DNA from: Hyunsoonleella ulvae | Lineage (GTDB): Bacteria > Bacteroidota > Bacteroidia > Flavobacteriales > Flavobacteriaceae | Direction: 5' to 3' | DNA length: 64,000 bases | Assembly (NCBI RefSeq): GCF_016827605.1 | Contig: NZ_JAEPJQ010000001.1 | Location: forward strand, 930,001 to 994,000 | In this document: positions 36,106 to 48,900 of the stretch, in pieces | Layout of the letters: every line of letters begins with the position of its first letter | Numbering within the stretch: position 1 is the first letter of the stretch | Translations under genes and position numbers: made by a program | The notes under the pieces: model-generated | What the model was told of the DNA's origin: nothing | The model's input: the letters and a program-made list of their open reading frames with translations, nothing else | Database searches by the model: none

Positions 36106-38253
36106 ATGAAACACTTCTACCTCATTTTATGTTTAGCTTGTTTACAAATAACTTTTGGTCAACCTGCAAACGACGATTGTGCCAATGCAGAACTAATTAC
36201 TATAGACACTTCGCTCACATCCTTTACCTTTGAAATCATTGATGCTACAGTCAATAACGAATTAGGATGTACTACCACTGCTGATTATGTTGACGTATGG
36301 TACGAATTTACCATGCCGTTTAATGGTAATCTCTATATAAATGGTGTTACCAGTTGGAACAATTTTGCGCTATACGATGCCTGCAACGGTAATGTGATTC
36401 AATGCGGAAATAACAATCAATTTATTAGTGGATTAACTAGCGGAACCAATTACAAATTAAGGGTATTTAGAACCGTCGCTCTAGCCAGCAACGGATCTAC
36501 AAGTTTCGGCATACAAGCATTCGAGGAAGTTACTAATGACACTTGCGCAGCAGCAGAAACTATTACAGTTACAACCGAAGCGTTGACATATGATTTTAAC
36601 ATTGGTGGGGCTGAGGTGCTTAACGAAATTGGATGCGATAGTACAGCGGATTATGTAGATATTTGGTACGAATTTACTATGCCAGTAACTGGTACCCTCT
36701 ACATAAATGCTGTTACTAGTTGGAACAATTTTACGCTATACGATGCCTGCAATGGCAATAGGATTCAATGCGGAACTAACAATCAATTTATTAGTGGGCT
36801 AACTAGCGGAACCAATTACAAATTAAGAGTGTTTAGAACTGTCTCTCTGGCTGACAACGCATTTACAAGTTTCGACATACAAGCATTCGAAGAGGTCACT
36901 AATGATACGTGTGCTTCAGCAGAAACTATTACGGTTACAACCGAAGCGTTGACATATGATTTTAACATTGGTGGGGCTGAGGTGCTTAACGAAATTGGAT
37001 GCGATAGTACAGCGGATTATGTAGATATTTGGTACGAATTTACGATGCCAGTTAATGGTAACCTCTACATAAATGCTGTTACTAGTTGGAACAATTTTAC
37101 GCTATACGATGCCTGCAATGGTAATGTGATTCAATGCGGAACTAACAATCAATTTATTAGTGGGCTAACTAGCGGAACCAATTACAAATTAAGAGTGTTT
37201 AGAACTGTCTCTCTGGCCGACAACGGATTTACAAGTTTCGGCATACAAGCATTCGAAGAAGTTACTAATGATACCTGTGCTACAGCAGAAACTATTACAG
37301 TTACAACCGAAGCATTGACATATGATTTTAACATTGGCGGGGCTGAGGTGCTTAACGAAGTTGGATGCGATAGTACAGCCGATTATGTAAACATCTGGTA
37401 CGAATTTACCATGCCAGTTAATGGTAACCTCTATATAAATGGTGTTACCAGTTGGAACAATTTTGCGCTATACGATGCCTGCAATGGCAATATGATTCAA
37501 TGCGGAAATAACAATCAATTTATTAGTGGATTAACTAATGGAACCAATTACAAATTAAGAGTGTTTAGAACTGTCTCTCTGGCTGACAACGCATTTACAA
37601 GTTTCGGCATACAAGCATTCGAGGAAGTTACTAATGATACGTGTGCTTCAGCAGAAAACTTTACGGTAACCGAAGGCAGTATTACCACTATTAATTTTGA
37701 AATTGGTGGGGCAACAGTTAATAATGAAACAGGGTGTACAACTGGAACAAATGAAGACTATGTAGATATCTGGTACAGTTTTGAAATGCCTCTGAATGGC
37801 GATATTGAAATTGATGGCAATATTACCTGGAATAATTTTGCCTTTTTCGATGACTGTATGGCCAATAATAGCTTAGCGTGTTTTGAAGAATCTGGAACTG
37901 TTACCAATTTGTCAGCAAATAACACCTATTGGATTAGAGTATTTAGAACTATTGATTTGGCAGACAACACGGCAAATACGAGTTTCAATATTTCAATTGC
38001 AAATAGCTTAAGTACTACTACTTTTACTAATGCAGATGTTAGGGTTTACCCTAATCCTACGAATGATGTTATAAATATACACTCAAACAAGTCGTTCGAC
38101 ACATTAGAATTATACAATATACAGGGCAAAAAAATAATATCTGTTAAAAGCCAGAATAAGCTATCCATTGGTTCTTTAGAATCAGGAATTTATATATTAA
38201 AAATTAAATCCCAACAGAATAAGCAAGTCGTCAAAAGGATTGTTATTAATTAA
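36106..38253 (+). CDS. Secreted repeat protein with T9SS type A sorting domain
   Basis: 715 residues. A signal peptide (cleavage near FGQ, residue 19) leads into five tandem domains of 122 residues from residue 22. Each opens with NDxCxxAE and contains GCxxTADYVDIWYEF, WNNFxLYDACNG and FRTxxLA motifs. These are beta-sandwich domains with paired cysteines, of unknown ligand. The C-terminus (from about residue 645) is a T9SS type A domain: VYPNPTNDVINI, then LYNIQGKKI and GIYILKI, ending in KRIVIN. It is therefore exported by T9SS and cell-attached or released. The fifth domain is more diverged. It probably has a surface or matrix role. Confidence 0.85.
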   Translation: MKHFYLILCLACLQITFGQPANDDCANAELITIDTSLTSFTFEIIDATVNNELGCTTTADYVDVWYEFTMPFNGNLYINGVTSWNNFALYDACNGNVIQCGNNNQFISGLTSGTNYKLRVFRTVALASNGSTSFGIQAFEEVTNDTCAAAETITVTTEALTYDFNIGGAEVLNEIGCDSTADYVDIWYEFTMPVTGTLYINAVTSWNNFTLYDACNGNRIQCGTNNQFISGLTSGTNYKLRVFRTVSLADNAFTSFDIQAFEEVTNDTCASAETITVTTEALTYDFNIGGAEVLNEIGCDSTADYVDIWYEFTMPVNGNLYINAVTSWNNFTLYDACNGNVIQCGTNNQFISGLTSGTNYKLRVFRTVSLADNGFTSFGIQAFEEVTNDTCATAETITVTTEALTYDFNIGGAEVLNEVGCDSTADYVNIWYEFTMPVNGNLYINGVTSWNNFALYDACNGNMIQCGNNNQFISGLTNGTNYKLRVFRTVSLADNAFTSFGIQAFEEVTNDTCASAENFTVTEGSITTINFEIGGATVNNETGCTTGTNEDYVDIWYSFEMPLNGDIEIDGNITWNNFAFFDDCMANNSLACFEESGTVTNLSANNTYWIRVFRTIDLADNTANTSFNISIANSLSTTTFTNADVRVYPNPTNDVINIHSNKSFDTLELYNIQGKKIISVKSQNKLSIGSLESGIYILKIKSQQNKQVVKRIVIN
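36169..37998 (+). repeat. Five tandem 366-bp coding repeats
   Basis: Units begin at 36169, 36535, 36901, 37267 and 37633, exactly 366 bp (122 codons) apart, each starting at the Asn-Asp codon pair. Units 2-4 are almost identical at the nucleotide level, unit 1 is close, and unit 5 is diverged. The pattern implies recent amplification or gene conversion. Confidence 0.9.
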
Positions 38254-41170: not shown

Positions 41171-44023
41171 ATGTCAGACCAAAAACGCCTTTTTTTAGTA
41201 GATGCTTATGCTTTAATTTTTCGTGGGTATTATGCTTTTATAAAAAATCCAAGAATCAACTCTAAAGGAGAGGACACCTCAGCCATTATGGGGTTTATGA
41301 ATTCGTTATTGGATGTGATAAAACGCGAACGTCCAGATCACTTAGCCGTTTGTTTTGATAAAGGTGGTAGTGTAGATCGTGTTGAAATGTACGAAGCGTA
41401 TAAGGCCAACCGAGACGAAACCCCAGAAGGCATTCGAACTGCCATTCCGCATATTTGCAATATTTTAGAGGCGATGCACATTCCCATTATGGTAAAAGAA
41501 GGCTATGAAGCCGATGATGTGATTGGCACACTTTCGCGACAAGCTGAAAAAGAGGGTTACAAAACCTATATGGTAACACCAGATAAGGATTTTGCGCAAT
41601 TGGTTACCGAGAATATTTTTATGTATCGCCCAGTTTTTGGCGGCGGTTACGAAACTTGGGGCATCCCAGAAGTACAAAAAAAGTTTGAGGTTGAAGACCC
41701 TATGCAGGTTATTGACTTTTTAGGAATGATGGGCGATTCCAGTGATAATATCCCAGGACTTCCTGGGGTTGGCGAAAAAACTGCGAAAAAGTTTTTGGCA
41801 CAATTTGGCAGTATGGAAGGTTTATTAGCAAACACCGATCAGCTAAAAGGTAAGATGAAGGAGAAGGTAGAAGCTAATGGCGAGTTAGGCTTACTCTCGA
41901 AAAAACTGGCAACCATTATGCTAGATGTTCCTGTAGAGTTTAATGCTAAAGATTTTGAACTAGACCATCCCGATGTTGAAAAAGTAAAAGCTATTTTTCA
42001 AGAATTAGAATTTAGGAGACTCACTGAAAATTTTGTAAAAACCTTTACACAAGATGCTGATGCTACAACAGCATCAAACCAATCATCTAATACTCAAAAT
42101 ACAGCTAGCAAACCAACACCTAAAGAGACTAAATCTGCTGGTGCTGGTCAGTTTTCATTATTTGGAGCAGATCCATCAAACGATGCTGAAACTACACCAG
42201 AATACACAAGAAAAACTGCAGAAACGACATCTCATTTCTACCAAAGTGTGGCCTCTGGAATGGCGACTAAATTGTTTATTAAAAACTTAATGAATCAAAC
42301 TTCTGTATGTTTTGATACAGAAACTACAGGATTGAATCCCTTAACTGCTGAATTAGTAGGTATTGCTTTTTCTTGGGAAGTCAGCAAAGGCTTTTATGTA
42401 CCATTTCCTGAAGATAAAAACGAAGCCCAAGAACTAATAGAGCAACTGCGTCCGTTTTTTGAAAGTGAGAAGATTGAGAAGATTGGTCAGAATTTAAAAT
42501 ATGATATTAAAGTTTTAGCGAAATACAACGTTGATGTTAAAGGAAAACTCTTTGATACTATGTTAGCGCATTACCTTATCAATCCAGATATGCGTCATAA
42601 TATGGATGTGCTGGCTGAAACCTATTTAAATTACACACCCATTTCTATTGAAACTTTAATTGGTAAAAAAGGGAAGAATCAATTATCGATGCGCGAGGTA
42701 CCACTGGAAAAACAAACCGAATATGCGGTTGAAGATGCAGATATTACATTACAATTAAAAGAACATTTTCAAAATGAGTTGGGCGAAGCCAATACCCAAA
42801 AACTATTTAATGATATTGAAGTACCCTTACTTCGAGTTTTAGCGGATATGGAACTAGAAGGTATTAACTTAGATAAAGACTTTTTAAATACCTTATCTCT
42901 AGCACTTGATAAAGACATTAAAACTTTAGAAGCTAAAATTTATGAAGCCGCAGGAGAAGAATTTAATATCTCTTCTCCAAAACAATTAGGTATTATACTT
43001 TTTGAAAAAATGAAGTTGGTGGATAAACCTAAAAAGACAAAATCTGGACAGTATTCTACAGCTGAGGATGTACTAAGCTATTTGGCAAAAGACCATGAAA
43101 TTATTCAAAATATATTAGACTTTAGAGGGTTATCTAAATTGAAAAGCACCTATGTAGATGCCTTACCAAATCAGGTTGAAGATGCCACAGGGCGTGTACA
43201 TACTGATTATATGCAAACCGTTGCAGCTACAGGGCGATTGAGTAGCAACAATCCTAACCTTCAAAATATTCCGATTCGTACCGAACGTGGACGACAAGTA
43301 CGTAAAGCCTTTATTCCGCGAAGTGAAGATTACACGCTTTTAGCAGCAGATTACTCGCAGATAGAATTAAGGATTATTGCGGCTTTAAGTAAAGAAGAAA
43401 CGATGATTTCTGCATTCCAAAACGGAGAAGACATTCATGCATCAACCGCTTCAAAAGTATTTAACGTACCTATTGATAGCGTTACACGTGAGCAACGTAG
43501 CAATGCCAAAACCGTGAATTTTGGTATTATTTACGGTGTTTCCGCTTTTGGATTAAGTAACCAAACTAATTTGTCTAGAGCAGAATCTAAAGAATTGATT
43601 GACACCTATTATGCTACTTATCCTAAACTTAGAAACTACATTAGCGAACAGGTAGATTTTGCAAGAGACAATGGCTATGTACAGACTGTTCTAGGTCGCC
43701 GTCGGTATTTAAAAGACATTAATTCCAGAAACGCCGTTGTACGAGGTGCCGCAGAACGTAATGCCGTAAATGCACCTATACAAGGTAGTGCTGCTGATAT
43801 TATTAAAATTGCCATGATTAATATTCATAATAAGCTATCAGAAGGCAATTTTAAAACCAAAATGCTACTACAAGTGCATGATGAATTGGTGTTTGATGTG
43901 TACAAACCAGAATTAGAGACCATCAAAACTCTTGTAAAAACCGAAATGGAAAATGCTTATAAACTAGAAGTACCTTTAGATGTTGATTTAGATATTGGCG
44001 ATAATTGGTTGGAGGCGCATTAA
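41171..44023 (+). CDS. polA: DNA polymerase I
   Basis: 950 residues with all three domains. The N-terminal 5' nuclease (residues 1 to about 290) has YKANRDETPEGI and MVTPDKDFAQL, and its Asp-rich metal site. The 3'-5' exonuclease has an intact DTETTGLNPL. The polymerase has motif A DYSQIELRIIAAL, motif B REQRSNAKTVNFGIIYG and motif C QVHDELVFDV. A Gln/Thr-rich linker (about 297-345) joins the first two. It performs Okazaki-fragment processing and repair synthesis. The last 31 codons and stop are duplicated 2,280 bp downstream. The native gene is complete, and its stop codon lies 2 bp from the convergent KAP gene. Confidence 0.98.
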   Translation: MSDQKRLFLVDAYALIFRGYYAFIKNPRINSKGEDTSAIMGFMNSLLDVIKRERPDHLAVCFDKGGSVDRVEMYEAYKANRDETPEGIRTAIPHICNILEAMHIPIMVKEGYEADDVIGTLSRQAEKEGYKTYMVTPDKDFAQLVTENIFMYRPVFGGGYETWGIPEVQKKFEVEDPMQVIDFLGMMGDSSDNIPGLPGVGEKTAKKFLAQFGSMEGLLANTDQLKGKMKEKVEANGELGLLSKKLATIMLDVPVEFNAKDFELDHPDVEKVKAIFQELEFRRLTENFVKTFTQDADATTASNQSSNTQNTASKPTPKETKSAGAGQFSLFGADPSNDAETTPEYTRKTAETTSHFYQSVASGMATKLFIKNLMNQTSVCFDTETTGLNPLTAELVGIAFSWEVSKGFYVPFPEDKNEAQELIEQLRPFFESEKIEKIGQNLKYDIKVLAKYNVDVKGKLFDTMLAHYLINPDMRHNMDVLAETYLNYTPISIETLIGKKGKNQLSMREVPLEKQTEYAVEDADITLQLKEHFQNELGEANTQKLFNDIEVPLLRVLADMELEGINLDKDFLNTLSLALDKDIKTLEAKIYEAAGEEFNISSPKQLGIILFEKMKLVDKPKKTKSGQYSTAEDVLSYLAKDHEIIQNILDFRGLSKLKSTYVDALPNQVEDATGRVHTDYMQTVAATGRLSSNNPNLQNIPIRTERGRQVRKAFIPRSEDYTLLAADYSQIELRIIAALSKEETMISAFQNGEDIHASTASKVFNVPIDSVTREQRSNAKTVNFGIIYGVSAFGLSNQTNLSRAESKELIDTYYATYPKLRNYISEQVDFARDNGYVQTVLGRRRYLKDINSRNAVVRGAAERNAVNAPIQGSAADIIKIAMINIHNKLSEGNFKTKMLLQVHDELVFDVYKPELETIKTLVKTEMENAYKLEVPLDVDLDIGDNWLEAH

Positions 44024-44024
44024 A
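43932..44024 (+). repeat. Left copy of 93-bp direct repeat (polA 3' end)
   Basis: Identical to 46212-46304 except for one base (43954 T versus 46234 C, a synonymous AAT/AAC codon difference). It covers the last 30 codons, the stop codon and one following base of polA, and forms the left boundary of the island. Confidence 0.95.
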
Positions 44025-44025
44025 A

Positions 44026-45483
44026 CTATATTGTTCTTCTTATAATATGTTTTATTGAGTTTAATGAACAAGTTGAAAAACTATTAGCTGAATGAAACAT
44101 CTCAACGTTATCGACTAAATATTTAACAAATTTGTATTCTAAAGTGTCGTTTGCTACTCTTATTTTATTGAAATCTTTCATCTGTAAAGCCTGAGTACTA
44201 ATCACAATCGCATCAAGTGGTAAAAAAGTATAAATAACACTTCTATATTGATTCGTTGAATTAAATATTTTCAACTGTTCATTAATCATATTATCATCCA
44301 TTAACCATTCCAAGCTTTGTATATTATTATTAAGATTATTATGGTTTACATTATCTTTAAGGGTTTTACAAAAGTTTAAATGTTTCCTTTTTAGGTTAAA
44401 AACACATTCCAAGGCAGTTGGCTCAAATTCCATTGCCAAAATAAAATATAAGGTTAAAATTGTCTCAAAATAATTACCTTCATCTCCATCAATAAATGAT
44501 GGTATATATCCAATATATTCTGAGCCTTTTGGTAAATTTGACTTTACATTCTTGAGAACTAGAAACTTGTTTAAAACTTTTTTAACTCTTCTTGGATTTG
44601 TAAAGTCTAATTCTCTAAAAAAATTGGAAATACTCCAATCTAAATTATCACCTAGAATTTCAACTTCGTTATTATCAAAATACTGACTTACCAATTTTAA
44701 TAAATCGTCATGTTTAGGCATTGAAAAAGAAATATCAAAAATCTTTTCTAAGTATTCATTTGCAATAACCACCTCTCCATATTTTGTTTTTACAGCTTCA
44801 TCAACAGCTTTTTTATCCACACCGCAAAAGAATATAGTTTTCTGCCCATAGGTAAAAAACAATTTTAATGCTGATAGTAAATTCAACACATTTTCTGGTT
44901 CACATCTATCTAAATCATCTATAAAAACTACGTTATATTCATGCCTCTTATTTTCGTTTCTCAGTCCTTCCCATTTTTTAAAAGAACTTTTAAAATTGTC
45001 ACGTGATTTAAAAAATGAACTTTTATTCTCATTATTAAATTCATCTATAAACTTCGAAGGATCAACCCTAATGCTAGGTCCTTTAGGATATAAAGGCACA
45101 TTAAATTTTATTGAGTTACCAAAACCTCTTAATATCTTGCCTCCATATTTCAAAATATCTCCATAAAATTCTTCGCTTACAGTATTACTTTCATTAAGTA
45201 AAAAATCCAAAAGAGATATTGGTAAGTTATCATCTTTTTCGAATTCCCAAGCTTCAAAAAAGAATGTATTGAAAGTTTCTTTTAGTTGGTCTTGTAAATA
45301 TAACATCAAAGTACTCTTTCCACTTCCCCATTCGCCATAAAGTGAAAACATTTTGATGTCTTTAAATTCTTCTGTATTACTTTCTAAAAACGTTTTTATT
45401 ATTTGACCTTTGTCAATTATACCTAAATAGTCATTGTCTTCGTTTAAATCTTCAACGGGAAGGTTATTCAATATTTTAGACAT
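44026..45483 (-). CDS. KAP-family P-loop NTPase
   Basis: 485 residues with Walker A GEWGSGKST (50-58) and Walker B VVFIDDLDR (185-193), followed by RCEPENVLNLL and a downstream TNPRRVKKVLN sensor-like segment. This set is typical of the KAP NTPase family, several members of which are linked to plasmid or phage conflict and phage exclusion. The membrane helices usually inserted after Walker A are not obvious; the 110-140 segment is only weakly hydrophobic, so the protein may be soluble. It is convergent with polA, their stop codons 2 bp apart, and AT-rich relative to polA. A defence role is plausible but inferred. Confidence 0.85.
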   Translation of the reverse strand: MSKILNNLPVEDLNEDNDYLGIIDKGQIIKTFLESNTEEFKDIKMFSLYGEWGSGKSTLMLYLQDQLKETFNTFFFEAWEFEKDDNLPISLLDFLLNESNTVSEEFYGDILKYGGKILRGFGNSIKFNVPLYPKGPSIRVDPSKFIDEFNNENKSSFFKSRDNFKSSFKKWEGLRNENKRHEYNVVFIDDLDRCEPENVLNLLSALKLFFTYGQKTIFFCGVDKKAVDEAVKTKYGEVVIANEYLEKIFDISFSMPKHDDLLKLVSQYFDNNEVEILGDNLDWSISNFFRELDFTNPRRVKKVLNKFLVLKNVKSNLPKGSEYIGYIPSFIDGDEGNYFETILTLYFILAMEFEPTALECVFNLKRKHLNFCKTLKDNVNHNNLNNNIQSLEWLMDDNMINEQLKIFNSTNQYRSVIYTFLPLDAIVISTQALQMKDFNKIRVANDTLEYKFVKYLVDNVEMFHSANSFSTCSLNSIKHIIRRTI

Positions 45484-45534
45484 AAAATATATTTTTAATA
45501 AAAGTAAGAATAATCTATCTTATATCTGTAGAAA

Positions 45535-45679
45535 CACCCCTAAAGTCCCCTCAAGGGGACATCACTCAAACTTTTAATCACACCTTCTCCTTTTAGAAGA
45601 ACAACCAAACTATAAAATATATAACTTAGTTTAAAAATTAAACGGTAACCATTGTCCCCTTGTGGGGACCACAGGGGTG
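45535..45679. repeat. Inverted-arm hairpin module A upstream of the DUF559 gene
   Basis: 145 bp beginning CACCCCT and ending AGGGGTG. Each arm carries a self-complementary hairpin GTCCCC-N4-GGGGAC (45545-45560 and 45654-45669). The interior is AT-rich and not shared with module B. The right arm ends 12 bp before the DUF559 start codon. The shape resembles a MITE or REP doublet. Confidence 0.8.
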
Positions 45680-45691
45680 TCAGATCAAAAC

Positions 45692-46057
45692 ATGAGAAAC
45701 AAAATAATTCCATACAAACCAGAACTTAAACAACTAGCTAGACAGTTGAGAAAAAATAGTTCTCTACCAGAGGTATTATTGTGGCAAAACATTAAACAAC
45801 GGGCTCTAGGCGTACAATTCCATAGACAAGTGCCAATGTTGGAATACATCGTTGATTTTTATTGTCACGAAATTGGTTTAGCTATTGAAATTGATGGTAA
45901 AAGTCATGACCATAGTGTCTTGTATGATGCTAAACGACAGGGTAAAATTGAAGCTTATGGTGTTACTTTTTTAAGATTTTCTAACGATGAAGTGAAAAAG
46001 AATATGTTTAGTGTTTTACTTGTTATTGAAGAAAAAGTAAAGGAATTAAGTGAATGA
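45692..46057 (+). CDS. DUF559 endonuclease-like protein
   Basis: 121 residues from the ATG at 45692; an in-frame GTG at 45662 lies inside the hairpin arm and is less likely. The DUF559 pattern is clear: SLPEVLLWQNIKQR (Glu27), then QVPMLEYIVDFYC (Asp55) and LAIEIDGKSH (Glu66, Asp68, Lys70). This matches the PD-(D/E)xK/Vsr-like nuclease fold. Such short genes occur in many Bacteroidota among intergenic repeats, and their biological role is not established. Hairpin arms lie 12 bp upstream and 15 bp downstream. It is probably part of the mobile unit. Confidence 0.85.
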   Translation: MRNKIIPYKPELKQLARQLRKNSSLPEVLLWQNIKQRALGVQFHRQVPMLEYIVDFYCHEIGLAIEIDGKSHDHSVLYDAKRQGKIEAYGVTFLRFSNDEVKKNMFSVLLVIEEKVKELSE

Positions 46058-46072
46058 CTTACTCTTATGGAA

Positions 46073-46210
46073 CACCCCTAAAGTCCCCTCAAGGGGACAC
46101 CACTCATAACTTTAAAAAAGCAGATTAGAATTTTAGTTATTAATTCTATTAATGTTCTATGGTTGGATTAACAAAGGCGTAAACCGATGTCCCCTTGAGG
46201 GGACTACAGG
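46073..46210. repeat. Inverted-arm hairpin module B downstream of the DUF559 gene
   Basis: 138 bp, beginning CACCCCT as in module A, with hairpins GTCCCC-N4-GGGGAC at 46083-46098 and 46189-46204. The right arm matches module A's right arm up to ACAGG (46206-46210) and is then cut off by the polA duplicate. The interior sequence is different from module A. Confidence 0.8.
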
Positions 46211-46211
46211 A

Positions 46212-46303
46212 TTGTAAAAACCGAAATGGAAAACGCTTATAAACTAGAAGTACCTTTAGATGTTGATTTAGATATTGGCGATAATTGGTTGGAGGCGCAT
46301 TAA
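46212..46303 (+). pseudogene. Duplicated C-terminal fragment of polA
   Basis: Encodes the last 30 codons and stop of DNA polymerase I without a start. The only difference from polA is one synonymous base, so the copy is recent or was carried in from a close relative. It forms the right boundary of the island, and the lipocalin-like gene ends 6 bp further on. Confidence 0.92.
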
Positions 46304-46308
46304 ATTCA

Positions 46309-46824
46309 TTACCCATTGCCCAGCTTTTCAAAAACAAAATCTCCTTGTCCATCTACAGGTAAAATCGCTCCAAGAGGAACATCTTCTAAAATCATTATAC
46401 TAGATTGTAATCTAATGGAAAAAGAGCTAGACTCATCATCTTCTCCCGAAATAGTAAGTTGATTCTCCTGTAAATCCCATGTACCAATAAATGTGTCTAT
46501 ATTTTCACAATTTACAACATACTCTACTTCCTCTTCAGTAGGGTTGAAATCATTCACATCATATTGCTCTAATATAACTGATTTATCAGGTCTAAACTCG
46601 AAAACCATCATTTCGCAACCCTCATTGAGTATTAATTGAACAAAATCAACTATATCTCCAGAAACTTCAGCAGGAATAGAGGCATTTGAAAAATCAATAT
46701 CTCTTAATTGCCACACACCTTCAAAAGATACTTGTTTGTCTTGCATATCTTCATTCGATGATTCCGAACACGATACTGTAAATAGTAATATTAGTAATAC
46801 TGAAAAAAATTTGGTAGTTTTCAT
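46309..46824 (-). CDS. Lipocalin-like lipoprotein
   Basis: 171 residues: a lipoprotein signal ending FTVSC (Cys19), a short acidic linker, and a beta-rich domain with the order GVWQLRDIDF, MVFEFRPDKSVI, FIGTWDLQENQLTI and a final FVFEKL. This is the pattern of the lipocalin-like families common in Bacteroidota. Ligand unknown. It is convergent with the island and was probably the original downstream neighbour of polA. Confidence 0.75.
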   Translation of the reverse strand: MKTTKFFSVLLILLFTVSCSESSNEDMQDKQVSFEGVWQLRDIDFSNASIPAEVSGDIVDFVQLILNEGCEMMVFEFRPDKSVILEQYDVNDFNPTEEEVEYVVNCENIDTFIGTWDLQENQLTISGEDDESSSFSIRLQSSIMILEDVPLGAILPVDGQGDFVFEKLGNG

Positions 46825-46895: not shown

Positions 46896-48845
46896 TTACC
46901 TGCGCTTATTTTTAGAACGAAACTTTGCCTTCTTCTTCCGCTTATTAAAAGGCACCGCGTCATCAAACGTATGTTTAGGTTTACCAGGTCTGTTTTTACG
47001 CCATTTTTCCTCCTTTTTAGGAAGTAAAACGTCCAATAAATCTTGTCGTCCTAGTTTATTTAATGTATTCTTTATCCACGCCTTATTTTCATCTTTATAC
47101 CAGAAGAAAAAACGATGCTGTTCATCCTTTTCTTTTTGGGTTTTTGGTGTTTTTACTTTTTTAAGCGTATAGGGATGATACCCACTGTAGTAAATCACAG
47201 TAGCCACCGTCATGGGAGTTGGTGTAAAGCCTTGTACTTGTTCTAACTGAAACCCCATATCTTTGGTTTCGGCAGCCAAATTAGCCATATCCTCAGCCTC
47301 ACAAGCAGGATGGTTCGAAATAAAATATGGAATCAATTGTAACTTCAAACCTTTTTTGATATTAATTTTATCAAAACGCTCTTTAAACTTATGGAAATAG
47401 CTAAACGAAGGTTTACGCATCAATTTTAAAACAGGATCACTGGTATGTTCAGGAGCCACTTTTAAGCGTCCAGAAACGTGCTTGGTCATTACCTCTTCAG
47501 TATAATCATCCAACTCTTTAGCATCAGCATTTTTATTGAATTCTGGCACTAACATATCATGGCGAATACCGCTACCAATAAACGACTTTTTAACCTTTGG
47601 ATGACTATCAACAGCTTGATATAAATCAGTTAAAGGTTTATGAGACGTATCTAGATTACTACAAATTACAGGCGAAATACACGACGGCGCCACACACTTA
47701 TCACAAATCTCCTGCACCTTCCCTTTCATTTTATACATGTTGGCGCTTGGACCGCCAATATCAGATAAATAGCCTTTAAAATCTGGCATATTTGCTACAG
47801 TATCAACCTCTCGCAATACCGACTCTTGGCTTCGGGAAGCTATAAATTTTCCTTGATGCGCAGAAATGGTACAAAAACTACAGCCCCCAAAACATCCACG
47901 ATGAATATTTATGGAAAATTTAATCATCTCATACGCAGGAATTGGTCCACGTTTATTGTATTTAGGATGGGGTAATCTTGTATAAGGCAACTCAAAAGAG
48001 GCATCAATTTCTTCCTCAGTCATGGTAGGATATGGCGGATTAATCATCAACGTTTTATCCTCAATCTTCTGAAAAATTCTACGTGCCGCAAGTTTATTAC
48101 TCTCCTGCTCTATTATCTTAAAATTAGAAGCATAAGCTTTCTTATCCTTCAAACACACCTCATGTGATTTAATCTCAACATCCTCCCAATTGCTATTTTT
48201 AGGGATTTTTGCATCTGCATTCAATAAAACTGCAGTTTGTTTTACGGTAGTAATACTACTAAAAGGCACCCCTTTTTGCAAAAGCCTTACCACCTCACGT
48301 AACGGCTGCTCTCCCATGCCATAAACTAGCATATCCGCCTTAGAACTCTCTAAAATAGTAGGCATTAATGTATTACTCCAATAATCGTAATGGGTAACAC
48401 GACGTAACGATGCCTCAATACCACCAATTAAAACCGGTACATCAGGCCATTTCTCTTTTAAAATATTAGTGTAAACTGTAGTAGCATAATCAGGACGAAA
48501 CCCAATATCACCATTAGGCGTATAAGCATCTTTTTTTCGGCGTTTCTTATTAGCGTTGTAGTTACTAATCATTGGGTCCATACACCCACCTGTAACCCCA
48601 AAAAACAATTTTGGTGCTCCCAATTTCACAAAATCCTGAAGATTATCATTCACATTAGGTTGTGGCACAATAGCCACCCGCAACCCAAAACTTTCCAATA
48701 AACGTCCTATAACAGCAGGTCCAAACGTTGGGTGGTCCACATACGCATCGCCACTAAAAAGGATCACATCGAGCGCATCCCACCCGCGAATTTTTACCTC
48801 TTTGTTTGTGGTAGGCAACCAACTAGAAAGTTTCAACTCCTGCAT
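46896..48845 (-). CDS. YgiQ family radical SAM protein
   Basis: 649 residues from MQELKLSSWLP; six further codons upstream are open but not conserved. The N-terminal YgiQ domain (WDALDVILFSGDAYVDHP) precedes a radical SAM core with CFGGCSFC near residue 320, which binds the 4Fe-4S cluster through CxxxCxxC. A C-terminal YgiQ-associated region ends in a very basic tail (KKKAKFRSKNKRR). The substrate of YgiQ enzymes is unknown. The gene is monocistronic. Confidence 0.93.
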   Translation of the reverse strand: MQELKLSSWLPTTNKEVKIRGWDALDVILFSGDAYVDHPTFGPAVIGRLLESFGLRVAIVPQPNVNDNLQDFVKLGAPKLFFGVTGGCMDPMISNYNANKKRRKKDAYTPNGDIGFRPDYATTVYTNILKEKWPDVPVLIGGIEASLRRVTHYDYWSNTLMPTILESSKADMLVYGMGEQPLREVVRLLQKGVPFSSITTVKQTAVLLNADAKIPKNSNWEDVEIKSHEVCLKDKKAYASNFKIIEQESNKLAARRIFQKIEDKTLMINPPYPTMTEEEIDASFELPYTRLPHPKYNKRGPIPAYEMIKFSINIHRGCFGGCSFCTISAHQGKFIASRSQESVLREVDTVANMPDFKGYLSDIGGPSANMYKMKGKVQEICDKCVAPSCISPVICSNLDTSHKPLTDLYQAVDSHPKVKKSFIGSGIRHDMLVPEFNKNADAKELDDYTEEVMTKHVSGRLKVAPEHTSDPVLKLMRKPSFSYFHKFKERFDKINIKKGLKLQLIPYFISNHPACEAEDMANLAAETKDMGFQLEQVQGFTPTPMTVATVIYYSGYHPYTLKKVKTPKTQKEKDEQHRFFFWYKDENKAWIKNTLNKLGRQDLLDVLLPKKEEKWRKNRPGKPKHTFDDAVPFNKRKKKAKFRSKNKRR

Positions 48846-48900
48846 AGCGTTGCAAAAATACACAAAAATTAACGCTTGTATACTGTGTATGTTTTATTTG

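What the first reader, a model, noticed from the sequence alone, without database searches (positions are those of the whole stretch)
43932..46304. A 2,280-bp island bounded by a 93-bp duplication of the polA 3' end
The last 93 bp of polA (43932-44024) recur at 46212-46304 with a single synonymous difference. The intervening DNA carries a KAP NTPase, a DUF559 nuclease-like gene and four hairpin repeats, but no recombinase. The duplication is too long for a usual transposon target duplication. It resembles integration of a circular element that carries its own copy of the gene end, so that polA stays intact after insertion. A housekeeping polymerase gene as an attachment site for such a tiny cassette would be unusual. 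Two readings remain: an exogenous cassette entered the site, or a local tandem duplication was followed by insertion of the repeats.
Basis: partly seen in the sequence, partly recalled or inferred. Interest (0 to 1): 0.88.

Follow-up and report, generated by a model that had tools for sequence, protein, structure and literature searches.

The report
Island inserted behind polA tail
Two genes, one a candidate anti-phage ATPase, were most likely spliced in right behind the DNA polymerase I gene by recombination guided by homology on one side only, leaving the old gene end behind as a scar; similar scars behind the same gene in a few related bacteria suggest that this place takes in new genes repeatedly.

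Summary
In detail: the last 93 bp of polA (43932-44024) recur at 46212-46304 with one difference, and 44025-46211 carries a KAP NTPase and a DUF559 gene between paired hairpin units. The nearest relative (G006) has the empty site, polA-lipocalin-ygiQ. The order polA-KAP(broken)-DUF559-ygiQ exists in another genus (G151). The window looks like two alternative arrangements of one locus joined in tandem, the 93 bp being the recipient's displaced polA end. No recombinase, no phage carrier and no plasmid with a close KAP relative was found. Relic polA ends behind other inserts occur in G007, Tenacibaculum discolor (KAP; sister species empty), G281 and G182 (three in one locus); G239 has one on another contig. 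Relics reach from about 20 to at least 222 bp back from the stop, which argues against a fixed attachment site and for one-sided homologous import (homology-facilitated illegitimate recombination). KAP lies behind polA in 26 of 33 loci although it is rare (10 of 397 genomes). Whether polA is special among core genes is open: 4 of 397 genomes with a displaced end against 0 of 329 for infB, not significant. Stacking is known from T6SS and Rhs loci; polA as anchor seems new.

The parts
41171..44023 (+). polA, DNA polymerase I, intact; the anchor of homology
   Evidence: NCBIfam TIGR00593 and NF004397; 93.3 percent nucleotide identity to G006 over the gene
43932..44024 (+). functional polA 3' end (copy 1)
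44026..45483 (-). KAP P-loop NTPase, convergent with polA, its stop codon 2 bp behind that of polA; candidate phage-defence gene
   Evidence: Pfam KAP_NTPase 1.8e-26; PADLOC PDC-S20 8.4e-25, QatA 3.7e-15; conserved G-W-GSGKST and FIDDLDRC blocks
45533..45680 (.). left hairpin unit: ACACCCC ... GGGGTGT ends, two hairpins in inverted order
   Evidence: I3; like units beside DUF559 in G151 and G398
45692..46057 (+). DUF559 nuclease-like gene (frame open from 45662)
   Evidence: Pfam DUF559 6.4e-30; 88 and 91 percent identical homologues in the polA-ygiQ region of G151 and G398
46071..46211 (.). right hairpin unit, its last bases changed or replaced at the junction
   Evidence: compare G151
46212..46304 (+). 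second copy of the polA 3' end, read as the relic of the recipient's polA, joined natively to the lipocalin side
   Evidence: downstream junction as in G006
46309..46824 (-). lipocalin-like lipoprotein gene; next to polA in G006 and G002, behind a KAP remnant in G004, behind an insert and a relic in G007
   Evidence: Pfam Lipocalin_4
46896..48863 (-). ygiQ, far side of the variable polA-ygiQ region
   Evidence: NCBIfam TIGR03904

Best explanation
The island is the result of a one-sided homologous import at polA. Incoming chromosomal DNA of the arrangement polA-KAP-unit-DUF559-unit, probably from a strain of the same species because the two polA ends differ at only 1 of 93 bases, paired with the recipient's polA. 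Homologous recombination within polA gave the left end. On the right, the incoming end at the hairpin unit was joined without real homology to the recipient's polA 93 bp before its end. The incoming polA end completes the gene; the recipient's own last 93 bp remains as a relic in front of its native neighbour, the lipocalin gene. Such events recur behind polA in Flavobacteriaceae, with the newest insert next to polA. Shown: the duplication, empty sites in sister genomes, recurrence, variable relic length, no recombinase gene. Inferred: the recombination route, the donor, the order of layers, and that copy 2 in the window is the resident one.
For: Empty site: the window with 44025-46304 left out aligns to G006 over 1031 bp at 89.6 percent (14 gap positions), and T. 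discolor without its insert and relic aligns to G474 and G446 over 1100 bp at 92.5 and 90.2 percent without gaps. Donor-like order in another genus: G151 polA-KAP(broken)-unit-DUF559-unit-ygiQ; Algicola MAG L091 ygiQ-DUF559-KAP-polA, there with DUF559 turned round. Recurrence: relics in G007, T. discolor, G281 and G182; an anchored scan of the last 24 bases found seven relics, the window's included, in 99 loci, against 0 and 1 in two controls. Resident relic: in G007 the relic match to G002 runs on past the stop codon; in T. discolor it matches sister G474 through into the native downstream sequence (182 bits, against 97 for its own polA). Variable relic length: 93 in the window, 90 or more in T. 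discolor, 131 in G281, 139, 191 and 20 in G182, back to at least 222 with a deletion inside in G007. About 3 shared bases at the right junction, if the donor unit ended like the left one (inspection). Natural competence is reported for Riemerella anatipestifer, a relative in the class (PMC8459023, start of abstract seen in the listing; its placing is recalled).
Against: The incoming polA end cannot be told from the resident one in the window (90 against 89 of 93 to G006), and polA shows no drop in identity to G006 at its 3' end, so no foreign tract is visible and a donor of the same species has to be assumed. The right boundary falls at the end of a hairpin unit, so the DUF559/unit element may have taken part. 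25 of 26 polA-KAP loci in named genomes carry no clear relic (three had matches of 16-29 nt that I took for chance), so most KAP genes may be inherited in place or the relics lost. In G003, of the window's own genus, KAP lies beside ygiQ and not polA. Competence of this organism was not tested.
Confidence: 0.72

Rival explanations
1. Site-specific integration of a small non-autonomous element that carries a polA end as attachment site and uses an integrase supplied in trans.
For: The insert begins directly behind the polA stop and polA stays whole, as with islands that integrate at gene ends; KAP lies behind polA in 26 of 33 loci.
Against: Relic lengths vary from about 20 to at least 222 bp; contents are unrelated; no integrase in the island; 25 of 26 named polA-KAP loci show no clear second copy; no phage hit and plasmid hits only at 34.4 percent or less for KAP.
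Confidence: 0.1
2. Local event: tandem duplication of the polA end within one chromosome, followed by insertion of KAP and DUF559 between the copies.
For: The copies are nearly identical to each other and both differ from G006 at shared sites, as a local copy would.
Against: The same two genes in the same order lie behind polA in G151 without duplication, so the block came as a whole; recurrence with unrelated contents would need the same two-step accident each time.
Confidence: 0.08
3. KAP is an old vertical neighbour of polA that was lost in most lineages but not in that of the window, and the 93 bp came later by template switching.
For: The KAP tree groups mostly by genus; a KAP remnant lies behind polA in G004 (tblastn E 8e-6 over 48 aa; not found at 1e-6) and KAP beside ygiQ in G003.
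Against: Copy 2 is followed by the polA-lipocalin junction as in G006, which a copied fragment would not restore so exactly; the KAP and polA trees disagree for the window and Kordia.
Confidence: 0.1

Closest known systems
Homology-facilitated illegitimate recombination (discussed in PMC2884548, passages seen, which names Streptococcus pneumoniae, Acinetobacter and Pseudomonas stutzeri; E. coli conjugation PMC3240628, listing and start of abstract seen)
   Same: one homologous anchor, one non-homologous join, gain of new DNA next to a conserved gene
   Different: here inferred from sequence only; the join falls back inside the anchor gene and so duplicates its end
Sequential displacement arrays of T6SS effector-immunity modules, and Rhs orphan ends as discussed there (PMC5361080, passages seen)
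   Same: a new module enters at a conserved 5' anchor and the displaced old end is kept downstream; several layers can stack, as in G182
   Different: the anchor is the housekeeping gene polA, which stays functional and constant; contents are unrelated genes, not toxin-immunity pairs
Islands that integrate at gene 3' ends and restore the gene end (recalled, no call)
   Same: the target gene remains intact and a partial copy lies at the far end
   Different: no recombinase, no constant repeat length, contents of a few ordinary genes
KAP NTPases: PADLOC PDC-S20, QatA, PifA
   Same: KAP P-loop domain; match to PDC-S20 over residues 17-398
   Different: single gene without further defence genes in the island; far below the curated NCBIfam QatA cut-off (66.5 against 600 bits)

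Membership tests
Homology-facilitated illegitimate recombination event | one end of the insert joined through a stretch homologous to the recipient | tested here: met
   polA continuous into the insert; donor-like order polA-KAP-DUF559 in G151 and, with DUF559 turned, L091
Homology-facilitated illegitimate recombination event | other end joined with no or very short homology | tested here: inconclusive
   about 3 shared bases at 46211/46212 if the donor unit ended like the left one; the donor itself is not known
Homology-facilitated illegitimate recombination event | recipient state without the insert exists | tested here: met
   G006; for T. discolor G474 and G446
Homology-facilitated illegitimate recombination event | uptake of linear DNA and RecA dependence | not testable with these tools
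   needs experiment
Site-specific integrative element at a gene end | integrase or other recombinase in the element | tested here: not met
   only KAP and DUF559 among the reading frames above 70 aa
Site-specific integrative element at a gene end | constant attachment repeat | tested here: not met
   relic lengths about 20 to at least 222 bp
Site-specific integrative element at a gene end | excised circle | not testable with these tools
   no reads
Stacked displacement array | several displaced ends of the anchor gene in one locus | tested here: not met
   the window has one relic; three in G182
PDC-S20 candidate defence KAP NTPase | profile match over most of the protein | tested here: met
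   8.4e-25, residues 17-398 of 485
PDC-S20 candidate defence KAP NTPase | protection against phage | not testable with these tools
   needs experiment
Qat system | QatA together with QatB, QatC and QatD | tested here: not met
   no other genes than KAP and DUF559 in the island; QatA match partial and below cut-off

The most novel reading that the evidence does not exclude
The polA 3' end of Flavobacteriaceae is a homology-addressed docking site that needs no recombinase: genes travel as polA-end-plus-cargo, the end serves as their address in any relative, each arrival pushes the previous polA end and its cargo outward, and the KAP defence NTPase has specialised on this address.
Probability: 0.3. 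Interest if true: 0.75.

Novelty: new variant of a known kind. Interest (0 to 1): 0.58.

Why it matters
It would give a concrete way in which small defence and other genes are gained at a fixed chromosomal place without integrases, and a readable scar (orphan gene ends) by which such events can be counted and ordered in time. Scanning for displaced 3' ends of core genes would test how common integrase-free gene gain is.

Tried and rejected
Transposon target duplication: rejected, 93 bp here and other lengths elsewhere. Plasmid or phage carrier: no phage match by protein, three plasmid matches at 34.4 percent or less; the island DNA hit one plasmid record over 15 percent of its length; phages were not searched by DNA; 12 viral contigs hold KAP relatives at 36 percent or less, flanks not examined. 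Foreign polA tract in the window: not seen (one search was a faulty version in which minus-strand loci had not been turned). A polA tail search at E up to 1 was too loose and was repeated at 5e-4: 6 of 397 genomes had more than one match. G088 was dropped (the two pieces share 127 exact bases at two contig ends, a contig split) and G179 (a separate polA-like frame of 438 aa); G000, G182, G281 and G239 were kept, G239 with its relic on another contig. Control with infB: 0 of 329 genomes with more than one match; four against none is not significant (about 0.09, my own arithmetic). It is one control gene only, at the end of another operon. G007's relic was missed by the search and found by blastn, so such searches undercount. 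The 99 loci are not independent: several genomes appear twice, 30 loci have only about 1.5 kb downstream, and L193, L194 and L112 were included after their relics were known. Tree: 2 of 28 rows were dropped (no polA in the flank; broken KAP), and the KAP genes closest by identity (G151 fragment, G003) were not in it. Paper searches for a polA hotspot and for PDC-S20 gave nothing to the point, judged from listings; the nine papers (DUF559 and repeat) were judged from titles and abstract starts only.

Full report
Observation. The 93-bp repeat is real: 92 of 93 bases agree between 43932-44024 and 46212-46304. Between them lie a KAP NTPase gene, convergent with polA and ending 2 bp behind its stop codon, and a DUF559 gene between two hairpin units. 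No recombinase gene is present.

The empty site. In G006, the nearest of 40 genomes by polA (98 percent aa), polA is followed directly by the lipocalin gene and ygiQ; the window without 44025-46304 aligns to it over 1031 bp. Copy 2 in the window is followed by this native junction, copy 1 by KAP. So the block was inserted into a polA-lipocalin chromosome. Of 12 genomes of the genus only G000 and G003 have KAP at E 1e-6 or better; G004 has what looks like a decayed KAP end behind polA (48 aa, E 8e-6).

Where the block comes from. KAP is rare: 10 of 397 family genomes at E 1e-30. In the nine others it lies behind polA in the same convergent orientation, from directly adjacent to about 11 kb away (in G410 for one of two fragments). 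A scan of genome contigs gave 33 loci; polA is in the flank of 26, convergent in each, and in 17 of these the KAP start codon is 1430-1569 bp from the polA end, about one KAP gene length (in Lacinutrix algicola the KAP frame is broken). The seven others: L119, whose contig has the length of that of G099, with polA about 11 kb away; L089, whose contig has the length of that of G003, where KAP and a decayed DUF559 lie beside ygiQ and not polA; L097; L099 on a short contig; L118; the fragment L120; and the weak L121. G151, of another genus, has polA-KAP-unit-DUF559-unit-ygiQ, its KAP partly deleted and interrupted by a DDE transposase gene. So the window shows the G151-type and the G006-type arrangement of the same locus in tandem.

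Recurrence. G007 has polA, an S9 peptidase and an Fe-ADH gene, then a decayed polA end that reaches back at least 222 bp with a deletion inside, then lipocalin. Tenacibaculum discolor has polA, KAP, a polA end relic (90 bp at 84 percent, weaker similarity further up), then a WYL-type gene (label recalled), while its relatives G474 and G446 have polA and this gene side by side. Among 58 Tenacibaculum genomes only this one and G451, whose polA match is split in two pieces, had two matches. G281 has polA, SusC/D-type genes and a relic of 131 bp. G182 has polA, a CHAT gene and others, a relic of 139 bp, an SBF-like transporter, the last 20 bp of polA, a transglycosylase-domain gene, a relic of 191 bp, then further genes and a ygiQ-like gene. 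The SBF-like gene lies directly behind polA in G307, which fits an older layer; G362, a genus mate of G182, has none of these genes in the stretch fetched. G239 has a relic of 119 bp on a different contig. An anchored scan of the last 24 bases found seven relics in 99 loci (675 kb) against none with the reversed tail and one on the opposite strand.

Mechanism. Relic lengths differ, contents differ and no recombinase is seen, so a fixed attachment site is unlikely. The right junction in the window has about 3 shared bases if the donor unit ended like the left one. One-sided homologous import explains why polA stays intact, why the insert begins right behind the stop codon, and why an old end is left. 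In T. discolor and G007 the relic continues into the native downstream sequence, so there the relic is probably the resident end. In the window the two ends are too alike to decide, and no foreign stretch is visible in polA, which points to a donor of the same species.

Inheritance. The KAP tree (26 rows) follows genera in the main, but the window KAP groups with Kordia and Flavobacterium (100/98) while its polA groups with Algicola, Mesoflavibacter and Seonamhaeicola (100/98). The disagreement is not strong in distance: by identity the closest KAP in the tree is that of Seonamhaeicola (52 percent), and the G151 fragment, not in the tree, is closer still (75 percent over 109 aa). Old residence at polA and transfer may both play a part.

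Limits. The test whether polA is special is weak: four of 397 genomes with a displaced polA end (G000, G182, G281, and G239 on another contig) against 0 of 329 for infB. The defence role of KAP rests on profile matches only. The stacking idea itself is known from T6SS loci of Vibrio (PMC5361080, passages), and one-sided homology as a source of variable segments is discussed in PMC2884548 (passages).

Noticed in passing
window 45533-46211; L053 1335-1984; L145; L146; L069 9403-10041: Stand-alone DUF559 genes are often flanked on both sides by hairpin units with ACACCCC ... GGGGTGT-like ends, somewhat like RAYT genes between REPINs (comparison recalled). In 15 small DUF559 loci, the window's included, the end motif lies within 500 bp in 10, on both sides in 7; 2.3 per kb near against 0.37 per kb farther out (the motif was chosen after seeing the window and L053).
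   Followed up: partly
L194 2036-15957 (G182): Three displaced polA ends in one locus, with unrelated genes between them.
   Followed up: partly
window 44026-45483 against L211 7635-9053: KAP of the window and of G003 agree at 58 of 60 columns at the N-terminus and 52 of 60 around the Walker B block, but at 12-24 of 60 in the last three full blocks: a conserved engine with a fast-changing C-terminal part.
   Followed up: partly
L033 2456-8448 (G004): CHAT, lipoprotein and LRR genes related to the top layer of G182 lie behind the lipocalin gene near polA in G004.
   Followed up: no
L195 120-759 (G239): A HepT-like / nucleotidyltransferase pair lies behind polA at a contig end.
   Followed up: no
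window 36106-38253: A gene with four direct repeats of about 300 nt spaced 366 bp.
   Followed up: no
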